A DNA stretch of 64,000 nt from Pedobacter sp. Leaf216 (GTDB lineage Bacteria > Bacteroidota > Bacteroidia > Sphingobacteriales > Sphingobacteriaceae): positions 1 to 64,000 of the forward strand of contig NZ_LMKM01000033.1 of the NCBI RefSeq assembly GCF_001421515.1, in the 5' to 3' direction. Below the pieces are notes generated by a model. The model was not told the origin of the DNA, did not search any database, and saw nothing but the letters and a program-made list of their open reading frames with translations. Made by a program: the position numbers and the translations under genes. Below are positions 2,060-45,912 of the stretch, one piece after another (the first letter of the stretch is position 1; each line of letters starts with the position of its first letter).

Positions 2060-3256
2060 ATGCTGAAACATAAAAATATAATCCTTGGCGTTTGCGGTAG
2101 CATTGCAGCATATAAATCGGCTTTTTTAGTTCGATTGCTTGTTAAAGCTGGTGCAAACGTAAAGGTTATCCTTACCCCTGATGGTGCTAATTTCATAACA
2201 CCACTAACCCTTGCTACGCTTTCTAAAAACCCTGTTTACACCCAATATTTCGAAGAAGAAACTGGGGTATGGAGCAATCATGTTGAACTAGGGCTTTGGG
2301 CCGATCTGATTATTATTGCTCCGATAAGTGCCAATACACTGGCTAAACTTTCAACAGGAATCTGCGATAACTTATTAACTGCTGTTTATCTTTCTGCAAA
2401 ATGCCCTGTTTATGTAGCTCCGGCAATGGATCTGGATATGTGGAAACATGAAACGACCCAGGCAAACATTAAAAAGATTATTAGTTTTGGAAATAAGGTT
2501 ATAGCGCCTGCCAATGGGGAACTTGCAAGCGGACTTTGGGGCGAAGGCCGAATGGCAGAGCCTGAAGAAATTGTTTCCTTTCTGAACAATGCCATACAAA
2601 AATCGATGCCATTCTTTGGCAAAAAAGTGATGGTAACTGCCGGCCCTACCTATGAAGCGATTGATCCGGTTCGATTTATAGGGAATCATTCTTCTGGTAA
2701 AATGGGTTTTGCAATTGCAGACGAATTGGTAAAACTTGGTGCTGAGGTTACTTTAATTGCCGGACCAACGGCACAAAAGGCTGACCAAACTTTAAAAAGA
2801 ATTGATGTAATAAGCGCAAAGGATATGTTTGATGCTTGTTCATCTATATTTTCAGAAACTGACATAATAGTAATGTGTGCGGCTGTGGCAGATTACCGCC
2901 CGAAATTAGTTGCTACACAAAAAATCAAAAAACAGGATAGTGACCTCTTTCTGGAATTAGAAAAAACTACTGACATCCTAGCTTCTTTGGGTGCCACAAA
3001 AAAAGCAAATCAGATTTTAGTTGGTTTTGCCTTAGAAACCAATGATGAGGAGAACTATGCCAAAGGTAAATTGGAGAAGAAAAATTTAGATTTGGTTGTT
3101 TTAAATTCTTTAAATGATAAGGGTGCAGGTTTTAAATCGGATACCAATAAAATTACTATTTTTAACAAGGCTTTAGAACGGACTGTATTTGAAACGAAAT
3201 CCAAAGCAGATGTGGCTAAAGATATATGTGCTGCCATTTTAAAAATTACAAAATGA
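2060..3256 (+). CDS. coaBC: CoaBC, pantothenate-to-phosphopantetheine bifunctional enzyme
   Basis: Bifunctional flavoprotein of coenzyme A synthesis: CoaB joins 4'-phosphopantothenate to cysteine and CoaC decarboxylates the product. The N-terminal half has the flavin motif GVCGSIAAYKS, the His motif NHVELG and PAMDLDMW. The C-terminal ligase half has DPVRFIGNHSSGKMG and the KIKK lysine motif. In the segment GELASGLWGEGRM a Ser stands where E. coli has the active-site Cys (ACG), a substitution also known from some other CoaBC. The ATG at 2060 is preferred over one at 2039, which would add seven unconserved residues. The stop overlaps the next start as ATGA. Confidence 0.93.
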   Translation: MLKHKNIILGVCGSIAAYKSAFLVRLLVKAGANVKVILTPDGANFITPLTLATLSKNPVYTQYFEEETGVWSNHVELGLWADLIIIAPISANTLAKLSTGICDNLLTAVYLSAKCPVYVAPAMDLDMWKHETTQANIKKIISFGNKVIAPANGELASGLWGEGRMAEPEEIVSFLNNAIQKSMPFFGKKVMVTAGPTYEAIDPVRFIGNHSSGKMGFAIADELVKLGAEVTLIAGPTAQKADQTLKRIDVISAKDMFDACSSIFSETDIIVMCAAVADYRPKLVATQKIKKQDSDLFLELEKTTDILASLGATKKANQILVGFALETNDEENYAKGKLEKKNLDLVVLNSLNDKGAGFKSDTNKITIFNKALERTVFETKSKADVAKDICAAILKITK

Positions 3257-37451: not shown

Positions 37452-37579
37452 TATTTGCAAAAATACGGTTTTTGTTCGATACGCAGGGTTAGATTTGAGA
37501 GATTAGATGTAAGATTTGAGATTGGGCGTACAATTTGTAGCTGGTAACGATTAGTTCTATAAATTTTGAATTATATTTT

Positions 37580-37796
37580 TCATTTATCAGGCTGCTCACC
37601 AAACATCTTTTCGAAATCTGCTTTGCTTTTTATGTAAGATGAGTAATTCCTTATATTGTAATTGGTCATATAAACTTTGAATTCGGCTTTGTTGCTATAC
37701 TTAGATTTACCCTCGTCATCAATTAGGCTGTAAAATCTATTCCTTTTATCGGGAACTTCATAATAAAGCCCCACCAATATTCTTTAACCACCTCAT
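37580..37796 (-). pseudogene. remnant of the tandem membrane-protein family, copy 6
   Basis: A dead fusion. On the minus strand, 37796 to about 37764 reads ATGAGGTGGTTAAAG..., matching the first codons of copy 3 (MRWLxNxGGAL). After the junction the sequence matches the C-terminal 60 residues of copy 1 (YYEVPxKxNxFYSLxDDxG to FEKMFGxQPDK). The two parts are in different frames and the first closes at once with TGA. No start drives the second part except a TTG. It is the last piece of the array before the radical SAM gene. Confidence 0.8.
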
Positions 37797-38373
37797 TACC
37801 TTTCTCAAAACGTTCCTTAAATTCTTCTTTCGGCATAATGTAAGTTAAGTACTGTTCTACATTATATTTAAATTGATTTTCAGTAATATCAACATTCCAT
37901 CCATCGTCTGAACCTCTGACTTTACTGATTGAATCAGGAAGGTCTTCTCTTACCCTGAAAACAGGTATTGGATTATTAGGAGTACCATAATGATTACTAT
38001 TTAGTTCATCTTTATTGATTGTTATTATTATTCTCTTGCCGCGTAAAGAAGTCGGAAAGGCAAGTCCTTTATCATCAGGATAATTAAAAAAAGTAATCTC
38101 TAAGTACTTTTTCATAGATTTTTCTCTAAAAAAAATTTTGTAAATACTCTCTTGTGGAGATAATAAAGATGTTTTATACTGAGTATCTCTGAAATCTAAT
38201 TGTTCAGGAAATAAAATCCTTAGTTCTACACAATTATCTATATATACAGGAATCGCATTTTTTGAATTATTATCTTTTTTTTTGAAAAGATAGTTAACCC
38301 CATAAATTATTATGGGAAATATGATTAATACACCTACAGCCCAGCCAATTGCTTGTGAGATTTGCTTATTCAT
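37723..38373 (-). CDS. tandem membrane-anchored protein, copy 5 (stop lost)
   Basis: A 216-residue protein of the local family. N-terminal hydrophobic anchor (AIGWAVGVLIIFPIIIYGVNYLF), then a basic linker, a variable central beta region, and the conserved end (YGTPNNPIPVFRVREDLPDS, then VEQYLTYIMPKEEFKERFEKG). Other copies stop right after FEKG/K or FEKTNE. Here the DNA reads GGTAATGAG where the copy 2/3 junction reads GGTAAATGAG, so one A is missing and the frame runs on for about 22 more residues through the dead copy 6. The product may still fold with an extra tail. Confidence 0.75.
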   Translation of the reverse strand: MNKQISQAIGWAVGVLIIFPIIIYGVNYLFKKKDNNSKNAIPVYIDNCVELRILFPEQLDFRDTQYKTSLLSPQESIYKIFFREKSMKKYLEITFFNYPDDKGLAFPTSLRGKRIIITINKDELNSNHYGTPNNPIPVFRVREDLPDSISKVRGSDDGWNVDITENQFKYNVEQYLTYIMPKEEFKERFEKGNEVVKEYWWGFIMKFPIKGIDFTA

Positions 38374-38389
38374 TTACAGATTGAAACTA

Positions 38390-39001
38390 TTATTTCTTTT
38401 CAAACCTCTCCTGAAATTCTTCTTTCGGCATAATGTAGGTTAAATAGGTTAGAACATTATGTTTGTACTGTTGATAAGTAGGTTCTAAGCTTTCATATCC
38501 GTTAACAGAACCTTCACTCTCTGAAGTAATTCGAATTGGTTCATTGATCCCTTTGAAAGTAAAAATAGGGATTGGTCTTTCTTTAGTACCATAGCTAGGA
38601 TCTTTTAAATCATCCTGATTTACCCATCCGGTTATTTTCTTTTTTTCAATTACTGATTCAAAATTCGCATAACTTTGATAGTTAGTATCAAATAAATAAA
38701 TCCTAAAATATTTACTTTCGATAGTCTCGAAAAAAGTAATGTACTGTATTTCTCCAGATAATCCTTTAAAACCAATACCACTAGCCCCCCGCCTATAATG
38801 ATCGAAATCTGTTTTCATATAAATTGGACTGTTGATGTCCGAAACTGGAATCTGAAGATCTATTTTAGAAATTTTACCTATATATAAATTTAAATATTTT
38901 GCTCCATCATTCTTTCTTACAGTAATTTTATTATACAAAAACACAAATAAGGGAAACAATACAAATACACCGACTATCCAGCCTACAGTTTGTTTACTCA
39001 T
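38390..39001 (-). CDS. tandem membrane-anchored protein, copy 4
   Basis: A 203-residue member of the array: N-terminal anchor TVGWIVGVFVLFPLFVFLYN, basic linker, central region, then the conserved DPSYGTKERPIPIFTFKGINEPI and YLTYIMPKEEFQERFEKK. The ATG at 39001 overlaps the end of copy 3 by eight bases, so translation is coupled; a TTG at 39013 is rejected. Its central part differs strongly from other copies, as expected for a diversifying immunity or receptor family. Confidence 0.8.
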   Translation of the reverse strand: MSKQTVGWIVGVFVLFPLFVFLYNKITVRKNDGAKYLNLYIGKISKIDLQIPVSDINSPIYMKTDFDHYRRGASGIGFKGLSGEIQYITFFETIESKYFRIYLFDTNYQSYANFESVIEKKKITGWVNQDDLKDPSYGTKERPIPIFTFKGINEPIRITSESEGSVNGYESLEPTYQQYKHNVLTYLTYIMPKEEFQERFEKK

Positions 39002-39626
39002 TTGTTTTCTCAAAGCGTTCCTTAAATTCTTTTCTTGGCATTACATAAGTAAGGTACATGTACACGTTATAATCGAATTGTTCTGGCGAGGTATCCTTAT
39101 TAATCATCTTACCTTCATTCTTCGTTCCTCTTCCTGGAATGAGAATTGGCCCATTTGCACCTCTTAAGCTAAAGCACATTAAGGGCTTTTCTTTGGTGCC
39201 GTATTCTGTGTTATTGAAATCATCTTTGTTTACTTTGAGCATAACTGTAGAGTCACCTATGTCATTCCAAAAAAGCGTGGTCAAATCTACCATTCCAATC
39301 CTAATGTGCTTTTTGTAGAGTGGCGAATAAATATCTTGGTAACGATAATAGGATAACTTACTGTTGCTTCCTGTCATGTTTTTTCTAACCAACTTAGTTT
39401 CAATTTGTTCGCTTATAAAAGGGTTTTTATCAAACGGCATTTCACTAGTGTTAGGCATTTTAAACTTCAACTCTATAACATTTTCCATATAAGGCTTTAT
39501 AAATGGCTCTACATTATCGTTTTCTTTGATAAAATATTTGTTATAAATAAAGATTATTAAAGGTAAGACTATCATAGCACCAATAATATAGCCTAAAGCC
39601 CCACCCATATTTTGTAACCATCTCAT
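38994..39626 (-). CDS. tandem membrane-anchored protein, copy 3
   Basis: A 210-residue copy: short start MRWLQNMGGAL, anchor GYIIGAMIVLPLIIFIYNK, basic linker, central region, then NTEYGTKEKPLMCFSLRGANGPI and YLTYVMPRKEFKERFEKTNE. It overlaps copy 2 by four bases (ATGA) and copy 4 by eight. The domain order (one helix, then a roughly 170-residue exported or periplasmic domain) is the same in all full copies. Confidence 0.8.
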   Translation of the reverse strand: MRWLQNMGGALGYIIGAMIVLPLIIFIYNKYFIKENDNVEPFIKPYMENVIELKFKMPNTSEMPFDKNPFISEQIETKLVRKNMTGSNSKLSYYRYQDIYSPLYKKHIRIGMVDLTTLFWNDIGDSTVMLKVNKDDFNNTEYGTKEKPLMCFSLRGANGPILIPGRGTKNEGKMINKDTSPEQFDYNVYMYLTYVMPRKEFKERFEKTNE

Positions 39627-39982
39627 TTACCTTTCTCAAAACGTTCCTTAAATTCTTCTTTAGGCATGATGTAGGTTAAGTACTGTTCAACATTATATTT
39701 AAATTGATTTTTAGTAATATCAACATTCCATCCATCTTCTGAACCTCTGATTTTACTGACTGAATCAGGAAGGTCTTCTCTTACTCTAGAAACAGGTATT
39801 GGATTGACCTTTGTTCCATAAGTATCGCAATTATTCAAACATTGTTTTACATATAGCTTGCCAGTGTTTACTCTTGTATCGGGATTATCAATTACATTAA
39901 CTATCCACCCCCCCACATATTTACCAAAAATCAAACCAATACCCAATAAACCAAATGCACCATATTTTAAAAGGTTTTTCAT
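39623..39982 (-). CDS. tandem membrane-anchored protein, copy 2 (chimera)
   Basis: A 119-residue chimeric copy. Residues 1-54 are nearly identical to copy 1 (MKNLLKYGAFGLLG to KQCLNNCDT). It then jumps in frame to the C-terminal segment of copy 5 (YGTK-NPIPVSRVREDLPDS to ERFEKGK). About 100 residues of the central region are missing. It overlaps copies 1 and 3 by four bases each, so it is still placed for coupled translation. Confidence 0.8.
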   Translation of the reverse strand: MKNLLKYGAFGLLGIGLIFGKYVGGWIVNVIDNPDTRVNTGKLYVKQCLNNCDTYGTKVNPIPVSRVREDLPDSVSKIRGSEDGWNVDITKNQFKYNVEQYLTYIMPKEEFKERFEKGK

Positions 39983-40632
39983 TTATCAGGCTGCTTGCCG
40001 AACATCTTTTCGAAATCTGCTTTGCTTTTTACATAGGAGAGATAGTTCCTAGCATTATAGCTGGCTGTATAATCTTTAAATTCTTTCTCAGTTTTATAAT
40101 TAGAATTGCCAATATCATCAACCAAACTATAAAAGCTATTCATTTTCTCCGGAACTTCATAATAGATGATAGGTACTGGTTTCTGCTTAGTACCATACGT
40201 ACCATCAGAGAGTTCATTTTTATTTACCATTGCAATGATGCTAGCACCATTTTGATCAACATCTGAAATAAAAGCATCGTACATTTGGCTATTCTTTGAA
40301 TTACTTGAAAAAAAATAATAAATGCAATAAAATTTATCTGATTTATCATCAAAAAAAACAGAGGTTTGTTTATCTAAATAGGCTGTATTATCAGCTTGCG
40401 AGAGGTTGAATGCACCCTGAACTTTAAAATCATCAAGTTTAATTGTGAAATTTCTCATGATCAAATGCACGGTATCGCAATTATTCAAATATTGTTTTAC
40501 ATATAGCTTGCCATTGTTTACTCTTGTATCTGGATTATCTATAATGTTAACGATCCACCGCCCCACATATTTACCAAATAATAAGCCAAGACCCAATAAA
40601 CCAAATGCACCGTATTTTAAAATGTTTTTCAT
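39979..40632 (-). CDS. tandem membrane-anchored protein, copy 1
   Basis: A 217-residue protein of unknown function, first of the array. N-terminal hydrophobic segment KYGAFGLLGLGLLFGKYVGRWIV, then Asn/Asp-rich linker, central beta-rich region, DGTYGTKQKPVPIIYYEVPEK and the end YLSYVKSKADFEKMFGKQPDK. The YGTKxxPxP motif and the C-terminal Y-Y/TYxxxKxxFxxxF motif recur through the array. It starts four bases after the PAAR-like stop. Position directly behind a PAAR-like effector candidate suggests an immunity role, which is inference. Confidence 0.8.
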   Translation of the reverse strand: MKNILKYGAFGLLGLGLLFGKYVGRWIVNIIDNPDTRVNNGKLYVKQYLNNCDTVHLIMRNFTIKLDDFKVQGAFNLSQADNTAYLDKQTSVFFDDKSDKFYCIYYFFSSNSKNSQMYDAFISDVDQNGASIIAMVNKNELSDGTYGTKQKPVPIIYYEVPEKMNSFYSLVDDIGNSNYKTEKEFKDYTASYNARNYLSYVKSKADFEKMFGKQPDK

Positions 40633-40636
40633 AGAG

Positions 40637-41839
40637 TTATTTTCGAGAAGCAATCACGCCACTACTATTGCTTGAATCTAAGTTGGTTAATTCCTTTCTA
40701 TTATTACGTACTTCTTTAATTAATTCTTTTTTATCTTCCTTATAACTTTTGGCAATGTAATGATTGGTAATTGCCCCTGCCACGCCAAAACCAAAACCAA
40801 CGCCTAAACCAATGCCTATATTTTTAAACTCACCTGCAAAAGTCCTTGTTCCCCAATATGTCATTCTTTCAGCTTGAGCATAAGTTCCTCCCTGATCAAT
40901 CACTTCCCTAATAATAGTTCTGTTTTGGTTGGTGATGACCTCTACAGCCTCTAAACTACCTTTACCTCCTCCTGCAACAGCACCAGCAATTTGATCTCTG
41001 GTTGCACTACTAATCTCGCCTTCTAAATCTTCTTCAGATGAGGCACCTTCATTCGTTAAGGCATCGGTATAGCGACCTTTTTTAAAATCATAGTTACCAG
41101 TAGCATAATCATAAGTACCAGTAGCAATTCCTAAAGATGTACCTAACGGATCTGCCAATCCGCTAAACCCACTTACAAAACCCATCCATAACTGTTGTTC
41201 TAAATGAAGGTTTATTTCCTCATTGTTGTTTTTGGCGAATTTATCAGCCGCCATTTGAGCAATTACAGGACTTATGAACGGCTGTAAAATTCCACCATTG
41301 ATGCAATTCAACATGGATTTTTGCAAGATGGCATTTTGCTTATTAAAGGTAACTTTATTATGATAATTTTCCCATTTGCTACCACTTTCCAAAGTACAAT
41401 CGCAGGCATGGCCACTGGTAAAAAGTCCAACTACTGCCTTAACAGGCTCAACCAACATGGCTGCTGCACCTGCAACGGCAAGAGAACCAACAATTACACC
41501 GGTAGCAGTACTAGAAGCAGCGGCTGCCATACCTGCTAATATTACCCCCGCTGCTCCACCAGTGCCTACAACAGCTGCTACTACTATTACTGCAGCTGCA
41601 ACGCACAAAATTCCAACTGCGAGCCCTGTAAACATTGCACCTAAGCCATTCCAAAATTTAGCAGGAGATTTACAAACAAAGGTTGCACTTAGTTTTTTAT
41701 CTTCTATGTTGAGCCATAGCGCTCCTTTAGATGAAAGAACTGTTCTGGCGCTTCTCGTCATTCCTAACTGTTGCGGTGATGAAACAGTCATCATCGTACA
41801 GTTAATCTTTACACCTGAGGGAAGATATGAACTACTCAT
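40637..41839 (-). CDS. PAAR-like (DUF4280-like) protein with large hydrophobic insert
   Basis: A 400-residue protein. The PAAR/DUF4280-like pattern is split: LPSGVKINC (Cys14), LNIEDKKLSATFVC (Cys56), then after an Ala/Gly-rich hydrophobic insert of about 70 residues (72-140), HACDC (Cys146, Cys148), SKWENYHNKVTF, LNC (Cys179) and the closing NGGILQPF. PAAR tips sharpen VgrG spikes. The C-terminal 200 residues are helical with a Gly-rich hydrophobic run (GIGLGVGFGFGVAGAI) and a Lys-rich end; no known toxin motif is visible, so pore formation is only a possibility. It overlaps the upstream gene by one base (TAATG). Confidence 0.75.
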   Translation of the reverse strand: MSSSYLPSGVKINCTMMTVSSPQQLGMTRSARTVLSSKGALWLNIEDKKLSATFVCKSPAKFWNGLGAMFTGLAVGILCVAAAVIVVAAVVGTGGAAGVILAGMAAAASSTATGVIVGSLAVAGAAAMLVEPVKAVVGLFTSGHACDCTLESGSKWENYHNKVTFNKQNAILQKSMLNCINGGILQPFISPVIAQMAADKFAKNNNEEINLHLEQQLWMGFVSGFSGLADPLGTSLGIATGTYDYATGNYDFKKGRYTDALTNEGASSEEDLEGEISSATRDQIAGAVAGGGKGSLEAVEVITNQNRTIIREVIDQGGTYAQAERMTYWGTRTFAGEFKNIGIGLGVGFGFGVAGAITNHYIAKSYKEDKKELIKEVRNNRKELTNLDSSNSSGVIASRK

Positions 41840-42780
41840 TAATTTATCCTCCTGATTTTATAATCCACAAATACTTCTATATTATTTTTTACAACCTCAT
41901 TGATTGTCATTTGTGCATCTAATAGTACTTCATCAGCTTGGTCGTAGCTGATTTGAATTCGATGGGTGAAATCATAACCATCAAATTTAAAACCGATGCG
42001 GGGTTTATATCTAAGGTCATAAATTTTTTCAAAGTCATTTATATTTAAATTTTTTCTGTTTAAACTACCGGATTTAAGTATAGTTATAGTTTCTGGAGTT
42101 TCGCTCGAGATCGTATTCTCAAAATCCAATTCAATGGGCAGCCTATCAAAAAGCTGCGAATAATAAAGCTTGGTATTATTATTTACCGTAAAGTTTTTTG
42201 ATACAAGATATCGATCAAAAAATAGGTCGAAAAAAGGCCGGATTTGAAAATCCTGAATTAAATTTTCCTGAATGAACTGAGGTTCTGTATTATTCAGATA
42301 TATAAAAATGCTTTTCTTCATTTCATCAGATTGAATGAACGATGTATTTTTTATAACATCTTTCTTAAAAGAATCCCAGTTTTCCCTAATTTGTTCAATA
42401 TTTTCTATTTTATCAATTTTTCCATTAATTGGATTTACTGCGATCAAAGCATTACTTTTTATTAAATCAATCTTACTCATCAGATCGAAACTATCCTGTA
42501 AATATTCCGGTTGGATTTTTACTATTTGATCAACAAGTTTTACATCTACTAAAAGCTGATTTTCCTTAATTATTTTTTCAACCGTATACTCCAATTTTGT
42601 ATCCGCATGGTTTTCAATTATACCATCAACTTTTATAACAACTAATTGTTCACTACGATACCTTGCTTTACCTGCTTTAAAACTGTTATCAGCTATTTTT
42701 TGTTTAGTTGTACTTTCAACATCCTGATGAGTTCTAATTTCAACAGGCTGCTCATCATCAAAAAATTTAAATCTGCTCAT
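41839..42780 (-). CDS. unknown protein between VgrG and PAAR-like genes
   Basis: A 313-residue soluble protein I do not recognise: no signal peptide, no membrane segment, many Lys/Glu and Ile/Asn residues. Notable segments are MSRFKFFDDEQPVEIRTH at the start and ITINEVVKNNIEVFVDYKIRRIN-like strand at the end (split as MTINEVVKNN and IEVFVDYKIRRIN). It begins two bases after VgrG and overlaps PAAR by one base. In contractile injection loci this place is usually taken by an effector-loading chaperone or adaptor, which is the working guess. Confidence 0.65.
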   Translation of the reverse strand: MSRFKFFDDEQPVEIRTHQDVESTTKQKIADNSFKAGKARYRSEQLVVIKVDGIIENHADTKLEYTVEKIIKENQLLVDVKLVDQIVKIQPEYLQDSFDLMSKIDLIKSNALIAVNPINGKIDKIENIEQIRENWDSFKKDVIKNTSFIQSDEMKKSIFIYLNNTEPQFIQENLIQDFQIRPFFDLFFDRYLVSKNFTVNNNTKLYYSQLFDRLPIELDFENTISSETPETITILKSGSLNRKNLNINDFEKIYDLRYKPRIGFKFDGYDFTHRIQISYDQADEVLLDAQMTINEVVKNNIEVFVDYKIRRIN

Positions 42781-42782
42781 AA

Positions 42783-44588
42783 TTAATTAATATCTACTTG
42801 ACTACCTGTTATTGTTTGAACCCCAGTTGATGTTTGCGAAATGGTTGTTTTAGAATCAATCACAATGCCATTGCTCGCTTTCGAATCTATGTTTTTCGTA
42901 TCAATAGTTACTGCAGTGGTGGCATTTTTACCAATGTTAACAGCATCGCCCGGCTTCTCACCTGCATTTGCGTTAATCACCTGCGTACCCTGAATATTGA
43001 TTACCTTACCAATAATATCAATCGTTCCATCCTTTTTCATCGTAATACTACTTAAACCCGTCTTAATTACTATCTTCTCAGCAGATTCTGCTGTAATCAA
43101 TCCTGGTCCGTTTTCAATCTTCACAAGGTTTGCCGCATTTGTACCCAGGTTCAGTGCATGGTTTAGATCATCAAAACTTAAAGCACTTCCCTTTCTTGAA
43201 GTCATGCCCTTAATGTTACTATTTTTAAATCCTTTACTATCTCCACTCTTTCCATGGTAAACACTACCCATTACTACAGGCCTGGCTACATTACCTTCTT
43301 CGAATGCAATTACCACCTGGTCGCCTTTTTCAGGAATGACATGGAAACCCCTGTTTTTTCCGGTATCGCCGCTACCTGCATTGGGGCTAACAACCCTTAA
43401 CCATTCAGTAGGGTCGTTGGTTTGACATTCCCATTTAAATTTCACTTTAATCCGGCCCTGCCCTTGCGGATCGTCGTTATCAACCACATCTGCCAGCTGC
43501 ATATCCGAATGTGGTTTCTCATAATTTTTAACCATCAAACGTTCAGTTGTAGCTACTAAGCCTTCGAAAGTGTTGCTGTATTTGCCTGTTCCATCTATTT
43601 GGTGATTGATGGAGGTAATTAAAAACTTCCCTAGGCTCTCTGTTGCAAAAGCCAGCTCTTTCCTGATACTCATGGTTATTTCGGCAATGCTTCCTATAGT
43701 GAGTAACGCATTATCGCCACCTGCATTTATCTTTAATAGTTCGCTAATATGTGCTTTTTCCTCATTTTCTACATGTCTTTTGATATCATTGCCATTATCA
43801 ACCCGAATTAATGAAGGTTGATTAAAGGTTTTGCTGTACATCGAATTAGAGGCCTTAATGGCATGCGCCAGATCAGGATTTCCGTCAGCTTTACCACTAC
43901 TTTCACTATGCAGCATTTCATCCTGCTTAGGATTATAGGCAAAACGCTTATATTTTATCGGCGAAACTTCCATGGCATATTGCAGGTTATGCACATCGCG
44001 ACCATAAAAGAGTGCTATTTCTTTCTGATCGTTAGGCTTGCCAAAATTAAGCTGCCTGCCATCATAATAAAACCACTCATGGTATTCACCTGAAAGGCGG
44101 TTTAAGAATGCAAAATCACTCTCCCGGTATTGTATAAGGTAATCAATCGCAGCTTTTCTGGAAGCGTTGGTTACAATTGCCAGGTCGTTAACAGGTGTAT
44201 CTTTGGTAGCGAGTTTTACAATAGTATCTAGGTCTTTATCCAGGTAAGAACCCAGATCCGGTCCGCGGTCGATTAATATGGTAGGGCTATAGCCACTAAT
44301 AATTAAAACACCATGATAGCCATGGCTCTGCGAAAGCTCTACCTTGGTAACCAGGCCGGTAAAATATTGCAGGTTTTCTGGAGAATGCCCAAAAGATGCA
44401 GTTAGGGTTTTGCCCACGAAATTGCGGCTGTCATCCAAGCTGATCAAACCTGGGGCACCCAATTGATCGTGGTTAAAATGAAGCTCAAAATAATGGTGCT
44501 GATTGAAAGATTGTAAAAGATTAAAAGAAGTAAAATGAGCTATTGCTGTATCTTCTATACTGATTTCTACGATAAGTTTGTTTTCCAT
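42783..44588 (-). CDS. vgrG: VgrG-like spike protein
   Basis: A 601-residue contractile-injection spike. The first 350 residues are the gp27-like hub (FELHFNHDQLG, YFTGLVTKVELSQSH, YRESDFAFLNRL). The OB-fold/gp5 domain sits near residues 365-455 (DNDDPQGQGRIKVKF, then EKGDQVVIAFEEGNVARPVVMGSVYHG). A repetitive beta-helix needle follows (KIVIKTGLSSITMKKDGTI, GKVINIQG, and NIGKNATTAVTID). This is the Bacteroidota type VI (T6SS-iii) or eCIS class. No sheath, tube, baseplate or ClpV gene is in the window, so it is an orphan spike that needs a machine encoded elsewhere. Confidence 0.92.
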   Translation of the reverse strand: MENKLIVEISIEDTAIAHFTSFNLLQSFNQHHYFELHFNHDQLGAPGLISLDDSRNFVGKTLTASFGHSPENLQYFTGLVTKVELSQSHGYHGVLIISGYSPTILIDRGPDLGSYLDKDLDTIVKLATKDTPVNDLAIVTNASRKAAIDYLIQYRESDFAFLNRLSGEYHEWFYYDGRQLNFGKPNDQKEIALFYGRDVHNLQYAMEVSPIKYKRFAYNPKQDEMLHSESSGKADGNPDLAHAIKASNSMYSKTFNQPSLIRVDNGNDIKRHVENEEKAHISELLKINAGGDNALLTIGSIAEITMSIRKELAFATESLGKFLITSINHQIDGTGKYSNTFEGLVATTERLMVKNYEKPHSDMQLADVVDNDDPQGQGRIKVKFKWECQTNDPTEWLRVVSPNAGSGDTGKNRGFHVIPEKGDQVVIAFEEGNVARPVVMGSVYHGKSGDSKGFKNSNIKGMTSRKGSALSFDDLNHALNLGTNAANLVKIENGPGLITAESAEKIVIKTGLSSITMKKDGTIDIIGKVINIQGTQVINANAGEKPGDAVNIGKNATTAVTIDTKNIDSKASNGIVIDSKTTISQTSTGVQTITGSQVDIN

Positions 44589-44628: not shown

Positions 44629-45345
44629 CTACATTTTTTTATATATCGCAATTTTATAAAGACCAGGATAGAAGTGCACTTCAAATTGCTTTCCTGCTGC
44701 ATTTCTTTTAGGTGAAGCCTCTATGTTTTTTTTAGTGTAAGGATGTACTTCTATAGTGTTTTCTTTTTTTAGATAACCATTACCGATCATGGCATCGATA
44801 TCGTTGGGCCGTACATGGATACAGCCGTGTGATTCTGCCAGCTGGAAGATCCTTCCTGAAGAAGTTGCAGCTTCATCAGGCGGGGTGGTATGGATAAAAT
44901 CACCCATAACATATTCTTTTCCGTTCATTTTCCGATCGTTGTTCATATCCTTGAAATACTTTATGGAAACATGTCCAAAATCATTAAACAACCATTTGGT
45001 TGGGATGGGAGAATTGGGATAAAGATCGCGCTGGTATTTGAGCACTGCATTTGTAACTCCACGCTGATCATTTCTATATTTTCCCCATTGTGCATTTACA
45101 TCAGTTAACTTTTTCCAGATACCCATATATTTCACCATCACGATGTTTCCACTTATCTTGATTTCGGTTCCCCAGGATATGCCTGACCACATGGCATAAC
45201 GACCATAACTAACATGTTTTTCTATGCTTTTGATGACAAACCTGCCAGCGGTTGTAGAGGTTTGAGAATGACCATCGTCTCCCATTTTAACATTGGAAGG
45301 GCCGCCATGTGCATCATATTCTTTAATTTTTACGAGCGTATTCAT
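44629..45345 (-). CDS. L,D-transpeptidase (YkuD) domain protein without signal peptide
   Basis: A 238-residue protein with an L,D-transpeptidase catalytic motif: His152 in IHTTPPDEAA and SHGCIHVRPND around Cys175. The Arg that normally follows (SHGCxR) is His here. Enzymes of this fold cross-link or cleave peptidoglycan peptides. The N-terminus (MNTLVKIKEYDAHGGPSNVK) has no Sec signal, unusual for a periplasmic enzyme. It lies 40 bases before vgrG, so it may be an injected cell-wall effector. It starts six bases after the lipoprotein stop. Confidence 0.82.
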   Translation of the reverse strand: MNTLVKIKEYDAHGGPSNVKMGDDGHSQTSTTAGRFVIKSIEKHVSYGRYAMWSGISWGTEIKISGNIVMVKYMGIWKKLTDVNAQWGKYRNDQRGVTNAVLKYQRDLYPNSPIPTKWLFNDFGHVSIKYFKDMNNDRKMNGKEYVMGDFIHTTPPDEAATSSGRIFQLAESHGCIHVRPNDIDAMIGNGYLKKENTIEVHPYTKKNIEASPKRNAAGKQFEVHFYPGLYKIAIYKKM

Positions 45346-45351
45346 TGTTGT

Positions 45352-45912
45352 TTATCTATATTTTAAAACCTCAACCATGGTAACCTGGGCAAGCTCAAGC
45401 TTTTCATTATTGTTAAAGGTTAACTTTATCGATGTATAGGCATTTAGATTTATCTCAACGGGAAGCGGTTGTTCAGTTACGCCGATTGTAGGTTTCTCTT
45501 TTTTAATGTTCCCAAAATGACGTGTAAAATCACCTACACGTAATGAATCGCTAATAAATTTTGGCAGCAACAATATAGCTCCAGCACCTATATGGCTTGC
45601 ATTGTTATTTTGATATGATTGAACGATGATATTTTGAGCATTTTTATTCTGTTCACCCTTATAAATACTGAGTGGTAATTTATTTGCGAACGATTTGTTT
45701 AATGATATGATATTGGATTCGTTAAATCTGTTTAAAGGAATCTTTGCCACTGAATCAGTATAGGAAAGAAATAGATCTGTAACAGTTATTTTTCCTGCTA
45801 TCTGATTATTATTTGTTTTATGCTGTTTATGATCACCATTACAACCTACAAAACAGGCAGATAATGCATATAATAAAACAAAAAGTATATTAAAACGAAA
45901 ATATAACGGCAT
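45352..45912 (-). CDS. lipoprotein of unknown function before the L,D-transpeptidase
   Basis: A 186-residue lipoprotein. The signal ends with two possible lipobox cysteines (LSAC, Cys20, and FVGC, Cys24), then a polar linker (DHKQHKTNNNQ) and a mixed beta domain ending LELAQVTMVEVLKYR. I do not recognise the family. It is the first gene of the vgrG train and sits six bases before the L,D-transpeptidase, so a periplasmic immunity role against that enzyme is plausible but only inference. Confidence 0.7.
   Translation of the reverse strand: MPLYFRFNILFVLLYALSACFVGCNGDHKQHKTNNNQIAGKITVTDLFLSYTDSVAKIPLNRFNESNIISLNKSFANKLPLSIYKGEQNKNAQNIIVQSYQNNNASHIGAGAILLLPKFISDSLRVGDFTRHFGNIKKEKPTIGVTEQPLPVEINLNAYTSIKLTFNNNEKLELAQVTMVEVLKYR

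What the first reader, a model, noticed from the sequence alone, without database searches (positions are those of the whole stretch)
37764..37800. Copy 5 lost its stop by a one-base deletion and reads into a dead copy
The copy 2/3 junction has GGTAAATGAG; the end of copy 5 has GGTAATGAG. The missing A removes the stop and adds about 22 residues. What follows is the start of a copy 3-like gene fused out of frame to the tail of a copy 1-like gene (about 37764). This shows at least one further full copy was once present.
Basis: seen in the sequence. Interest (0 to 1): 0.65.

Follow-up and report, generated by a model that had tools for sequence, protein, structure and literature searches.

The report
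Decaying end of immunity gene stack
A soil bacterium keeps a row of what look like antidote genes beside a toxin-injection locus, and the last genes in the row are being scrambled and lost, including one that lost its stop signal through a missing DNA letter.

Summary
On the - strand copy 5 reads GGTAATGAG (37800-37792) where the copy 2/3 junction reads GGTAAATGAG (39631-39622). The in-frame TGA is lost and copy 5 gains 24 residues. Behind it lie a 33-nt copy 3-like head (29/33 identical), joined out of frame to a 60-codon copy 1-like tail, then a probable stub of another start.

The setting explains it. This is a Pedobacter type VI secretion (T6SS) locus: VgrG, a DUF4280 PAAR-like effector candidate, then immunity-type genes. 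In 18 loci, effector type and first-immunity type co-vary (Mantel r 0.89, 0 of 5000 permutations). Copies 3-5 are nearer to other species' copies than to each other, and no matching effector was found in this genome: they look like orphan immunity genes left by effector replacement, as described in Vibrio cholerae. Two relatives still carry broken effector relics in such stacks.

Two corrections. The copies are old alleles, not plain duplicates. Copy 5's last 29 nt match copy 2 (29/29) but not its four orthologs (18-19), so its end was probably imported by recombination. Activity was not tested. A new member of a known kind.

The parts
37792..37800 (-). junction with the one-base loss (GGTAATGAG)
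   Evidence: eight comparable junctions keep the stop
37723..38373 (-). copy 5, immunity-type gene of type t5, 216 aa, residues 193-216 are read-through
   Evidence: orthologs 192 aa
37764..37796 (-). copy 3-like head, 33 nt, dead
   Evidence: 29/33 to copy 3
37580..37762 (-). copy 1-like tail of 60 codons plus TGA, no head
37564..37583 (-). probable stub of a further copy 1-type start
   Evidence: read from sequence; similar letters follow the same tail in P. psychrotolerans
38390..39001 (-). copy 4, type t4
38994..39626 (-). copy 3, type t3
39623..39982 (-). copy 2, 119-aa in-frame chimera of a t1 head and a t5 tail
39979..40632 (-). copy 1, type t1, putative cognate immunity gene
40637..41839 (-). 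PAAR-like DUF4280 protein, effector candidate
   Evidence: PF14107 27.0 bits, cut-off 26.3
41839..42780 (-). unnamed 313-aa protein between VgrG and the effector candidate, possible adaptor
   Evidence: varies with effector type; no Pfam or NCBIfam name
42783..44588 (-). VgrG
   Evidence: PF04717 and PF05954 over cut-off

Best explanation
The array is a stack of immunity genes at a Pedobacter T6SS effector locus. An incoming module (the gene between VgrG and PAAR, the PAAR-like effector, its immunity gene) replaces the resident effector by recombination anchored in vgrG. Old immunity genes stay downstream as orphans, newest near the effector, oldest near the radical-SAM gene. Copy 1 would protect against the cell's own effector; copies 3-5 against neighbours that still fire older effector types. 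At the old end, recombination between paralogs and small indels destroy copies. In the window, exchange with a copy 2-like gene gave copy 5 a new 3' end and a copy 3-like neighbour; a deletion joined that neighbour's head to the tail of an old copy 1-type gene; and the junction lost one base, which removed the stop and the TGA/ATG overlap. Copy 5 is otherwise sound and may still work. Shown by sequence: anatomy, type matching, junction differences, the shared remnant. Inferred: toxin and immunity activity, protection by orphans, vgrG as anchor, order of the last events.
For: VgrG and DUF4280 by Pfam; TssC and TssD elsewhere in the genome, over cut-off, 0 of 14 control genomes matching. Radical-SAM and ammonium-transporter neighbours recur in 12 of 26 other stretches examined (several others end at a contig edge). 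Effector type and first immunity type go together: t1 6 of 6, t5 6 of 6, t3 4 of 4, two others t4; Mantel r 0.89, 0 of 5000, 18 loci. One PAAR-like gene of this kind in the genome. Each window copy groups with other species' copies. Displaced effector relics: P. miscanthi has a frame-broken piece of this effector type (73-82%) just before an intact t1 gene beside the radical-SAM gene; P. mendelii, with a type A effector now, has an 87% piece of a type B effector. Copy 5 omega 0.10-0.18 against three orthologs, and 20 synonymous to 8 non-synonymous private changes. First copies intact 16 of 17, all other copies 24 intact and 27 broken, Fisher p 0.0005.
Against: No activity was tested. The immunity-type family has no Pfam or NCBIfam name; its model has no Foldseek match at E<=0.001 and only weak OB-like second looks. 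The effector model failed (pLDDT 30), so the toxin mode is unknown. Two loci share t4 immunity at 0.68 identity although their effector ends are 0.21 alike, and in one (G119) the t4 gene lies 135 bases behind the effector, so the t4 pairing is weak. Automatic clustering at E<1e-8 merged effector types B and D; I split them by identity. Private changes in two copy 5 orthologs are more non-synonymous than synonymous (AJM 7 to 9, R20-19 3 to 9), which speaks against steady constraint. The loci come from related species. The one base could still be a sequencing error.
Confidence: 0.83

Rival explanations
1. The missing A is a sequencing or assembly error; copy 5 really ends with the stop, like copy 2.
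For: One draft assembly only, 38 contigs; no reads or second strain could be examined.
Against: The run is only two or three A long; longest exact repeat in the array 35 bp; the fused, dead copy behind it does not depend on the base.
Confidence: 0.07
2. The array is a plain local tandem duplication of one gene, with no link to effector replacement.
For: Copies 1 and 2 share a 90% head over 161 nt and copies 2 and 5 a 94% tail over 179 nt, so some local copying or exchange has happened.
Against: Each full copy groups with other species' copies, not with its neighbours; first copy tracks effector type; effector relics in two relatives' stacks.
Confidence: 0.06
3. Copy 5 is already a dead gene: the added 24 residues or the lost coupling make it useless, so the last working orphan is copy 4.
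For: The tail extends the C-terminal helix in a low-confidence stretch; broken copies are common away from the effector; copy 5 lies next to the dead remnant.
Against: Open frame with 20 synonymous to 8 non-synonymous private changes; 91% identical to the AJM copy over 192 columns; most of the fold is modelled with high confidence.
Confidence: 0.3

Closest known systems
T6SS immunity gene arrays of Vibrio cholerae (PMC5361080)
   Same: One current effector-immunity pair followed by orphan immunity genes that match other strains' pairs; effector relics in the stack; an upstream homology anchor with an illegitimate join downstream is proposed there (sections 10 and 13 read).
   Different: Here Pedobacter with PAAR-like DUF4280 proteins; all immunity types used here belong to one homologous family, and recombination between them makes chimeras and head-tail fusions. 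The words pseudogene and frameshift do not occur in that paper's main text.
Tandem esaG and tipC immunity paralogs of the type VII system (PMC9484751)
   Same: Recombination between tandem immunity paralogs makes mosaics and deletions, for example a 5' part of one joined to the 3' end of another (abstract and passages seen).
   Different: Gram-positive T7SS; in the passages seen there is no stack ordered by effector replacement.
rAID orphan immunity arrays of gut Bacteroidales (PMC12247911)
   Same: Co-oriented short orphan immunity genes in Bacteroidota (passages seen).
   Different: rAID is described there with a tyrosine recombinase and conserved intergenic motifs; no recombinase was found among 20 proteins scanned here.

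Membership tests
T6SS effector-immunity locus with orphan immunity array (V. cholerae kind) | array lies directly 3' of a VgrG/effector module | tested here: met
T6SS effector-immunity locus with orphan immunity array (V. cholerae kind) | first immunity gene type tracks effector type | tested here: met
   (18 loci); weak for type t4
T6SS effector-immunity locus with orphan immunity array (V. cholerae kind) | downstream copies resemble cognate immunity genes of other strains and lack their effector in this genome | tested here: met
   weaker for copy 4
T6SS effector-immunity locus with orphan immunity array (V. cholerae kind) | relics of displaced effectors in the array | tested here: met
   in two relatives; none found in the window's array
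T6SS effector-immunity locus with orphan immunity array (V. cholerae kind) | immunity proteins neutralise the matching effector | not testable with these tools
   needs bench work
Bacteroidota T6SS (subtype iii; the subtype name is recalled) | TssD and TssC of that kind in the genome | tested here: met
   PF17642 and PF17541, over cut-off; 0 of 14 control genomes each
rAID acquired interbacterial defence array | tyrosine recombinase in the cluster | tested here: not met
   20 proteins of the locus and its neighbours scanned with Pfam, no recombinase; not every ORF of the window was scanned
rAID acquired interbacterial defence array | conserved intergenic motifs | not tested
   no motif set at hand

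The most novel reading that the evidence does not exclude
The old end of the stack is not only a graveyard but a workshop: recombination between orphan immunity paralogs makes in-frame chimeras (copy 2; copy 5's swapped end) that could carry new neutralising specificities, some kept by selection.
Probability: 0.2. Interest if true: 0.55.

Novelty: new member of a known kind. Interest (0 to 1): 0.36.

Why it matters
If right, it carries the effector-replacement model of T6SS immunity stacks from Vibrio to soil Bacteroidota. One chromosomal site, recurring in many Pedobacter genomes, preserves intermediate states: intact orphans, effector relics, chimeras and dead ends. The order and decay of orphans at such a fixed site let one ask how long an orphan antidote is worth keeping, and whether recombination makes new ones.

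Tried and rejected
Pfam and NCBIfam gave no family over cut-off for the immunity-type proteins. The immunity model was good (pLDDT 84), but Foldseek had no match at E<=0.001 and the best second-look Z was 5.1 to a PriB chain over 79 residues, which I do not read as kinship. The effector model was useless (pLDDT 30), so its fold was not searched. Searches stopped with an error; replace them. The copy 2/5 comparison was out of register; one search replaces it. In one search two immunity ORFs (G133, G140) were cut with slightly wrong ends; their stop signs were cut off or read as X. In one search the one 'broken' first copy (G140) is an effect of the length rule, since the gene is open, 203 aa, at L066:10001-10612; some 'broken' copies of L084 may be the same effect; copy 2 counts there as two broken pieces, the 33-nt head was not detected, and the G119 t4 gene counts as 'later'. 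Fisher p for first against later copies alone is 0.0011. Tail omega values rest on saturated dS (above 1.2; undefined against P. miscanthi), and the tail's private changes are 8 synonymous to 9 non-synonymous. A library search for Pedobacter, type VI secretion and immunity protein gave 0 papers. Telomere-like heptamer repeats beside some relatives' arrays were considered as recombination sites: none of three or more copies lies within 600 nt of the window's radical-SAM start, and like arrays occur elsewhere in the four genomes searched, so dropped. Programmed read-through was considered and not pursued, as the added residues are other genes' letters out of frame. Species names for G handles are my inference from equal contig lengths.

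Full report
Observation. The copies lie on the - strand: copy 1 40632-39979, copy 2 39982-39623, copy 3 39626-38994, copy 4 39001-38390, copy 5 38373-37723. Copy 5 has GGTAATGAG at 37800-37792 where the copy 2/3 junction has GGTAAATGAG at 39631-39622. Reading goes on for 24 residues to a TAA at 37725-37723. The head behind it is 29/33 identical to copy 3's first 33 nt; 198,753 sampled 33-mers of the window reached at most 20. It joins out of frame to a 60-codon copy 1-like tail with its own TGA, followed by what looks like the start of one more copy 1-type gene. The finding is confirmed and slightly larger than reported.

Direction of the change. Eight comparable junctions, each a family-type end before a copy 3-like start, keep an in-frame TGA that overlaps the next start codon: window copy 2/3, five in P. 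cryoconitis (one aligned over 53 nt only), one in genome G019 (its gene is 95% like one of those five), and one in P. jejuensis. Against each, the copy 5 junction has one gap (the listing was cut at 3000 characters). Of 46 family members copy 5 has the longest end after the last conserved Phe (27 residues; next 18, the other 44 at most 7). This speaks for a loss at copy 5's junction, not a gain elsewhere. The added end is modelled with low confidence.

Copy 5's end looks imported. Four orthologs end at 192 residues: Pedobacter sp. AJM 92%, P. psychrotolerans 90%, R20-19 87%, and the second copy of G125, 89% to the AJM copy. Over the last 29 nt the window's copy 5 is 29/29 identical to its own copy 2 but 18-19 identical to these orthologs (27 nt compared for G125); over 179 nt it is 168 to copy 2 and 144-158 to the orthologs. 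The simplest reading is an exchange with a copy 2-like gene that stood before a copy 3-like gene, which also explains the copy 3-like head. This is inference from a short stretch.

What the locus is. Upstream are VgrG and a DUF4280 PAAR-like protein, the latter just over its cut-off (27.0 against 26.3 bits). The genome holds TssD and TssC, each over its cut-off with 0 of 14 control genomes matching. Of 26 other stretches examined, 12 have the same radical-SAM and ammonium-transporter neighbours; the rest end at contig edges or lie elsewhere. 23 of 145 genus genomes match the immunity-type profile; a genome scan gave 34 loci in Pedobacter, Mucilaginibacter, Flavobacterium, Chryseobacterium, Prevotella and others.

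Effector and first immunity gene go together. In 18 loci, type A effectors are followed by t1 (6 of 6, the window among them), type B by t5 (6 of 6), type D by t3 (4 of 4), and two further effectors by t4. Identity of the effector's last 170 residues and identity of the first immunity protein correlate with r 0.89, reached by 0 of 5000 permutations. The types were set by me from identity; automatic clustering merged B and D, and the two t4 loci have unlike effectors. In the window, copies 3, 4 and 5 therefore belong to types whose effectors were not found in the genome: a search with the window's effector, which finds the other types in relatives at 27-38% identity, gives one place only. Each copy groups with copies of other species in a tree of 42 proteins, the argument used against plain duplication in Vibrio cholerae (PMC5361080; sections 10 and 13 read; passages).

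Displacement seen in relatives. P. miscanthi has a frame-broken piece of a type A effector (residues 296-400, 73-82% to the window's) directly before an intact t1 gene beside the radical-SAM gene; P. mendelii has an 87% piece (111 residues) of a type B effector behind its type A module. P. psychrotolerans carries the window's copy 1-like tail at the same place (84.8% over 99 nt, past the stop) but joined to a copy 5-like head. So the same old gene seems to have been cut by different deletions. The P. miscanthi t1 gene is the sister of window copy 1, so it shows position, not orthology, of the lost gene.

Decay by position. By an automatic rule, first copies were intact in 16 of 17 (the one miss is an effect of the rule), later copies 13 intact, 16 broken, 1 at a contig edge, and copies in loci without a scored effector 11 intact, 11 broken, 1 at an edge. 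Fisher p is 0.0005 for first against all others and 0.0011 for first against later. The species are related, so this is descriptive. Among copy 5 and three orthologs omega is 0.10-0.29. Copy 5 has 20 synonymous to 8 non-synonymous private changes, but two orthologs have 7 to 9 and 3 to 9. The dead tail shows omega 0.07-0.10 on saturated dS, with 8 to 9 private changes: constrained for most of its past, perhaps relaxed lately.

Comparison with the known. Anatomy and proposed mechanism match the V. cholerae arrays; the making of mosaics matches T7SS esaG and tipC genes (PMC9484751; abstract and passages seen). It differs from rAID arrays (PMC12247911; passages seen) in that no recombinase was found among 20 proteins scanned. 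Five library searches listed no paper on such arrays in Pedobacter; the library lacks most subscription journals.

Verdict. A real, ordinary mutational event at the decaying end of a T6SS immunity stack. The stack is the more interesting object, and it is a new member of a known kind.

Noticed in passing
window 39623-39982: Copy 2 is an in-frame chimera: a copy 1-like head joined to a copy 5-like tail, with about 75 middle residues missing.
   Followed up: partly
window 44629-45912; L098 2324-3760: A YkuD-like protein (just under Pfam's cut-off) and a second small protein upstream of VgrG travel with the locus; in one relative the YkuD-like ORF changes after about residue 71, so it may be a second polymorphic effector with its own immunity protein.
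   Followed up: no
window 41839-42780: The unnamed 313-aa protein between VgrG and the PAAR-like gene varies with effector type (54-81% within type A, 31-39% to others), which suggests an adaptor.
   Followed up: no
L084 316-5554 on the reversed strand (P. cryoconitis): A cluster of eight immunity-family matches, five scored intact, with no VgrG or effector match in the 11 kb held; it runs towards a contig end.
   Followed up: no
L014 4434, L018 7585, L097 4530 and 12751, L098 9410, L101 6512 and 13990: Telomere-like heptamer tandem repeats (CCCTAAA and variants) at the borders of the locus in five relatives; similar arrays occur at one to eight other places in three of these genomes and at three places in this genome.
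   Followed up: partly
L090 6531-6678 (P. psychrotolerans): A copy 5-like head joined to the same copy 1-like tail, a deletion parallel to the window's.
   Followed up: partly
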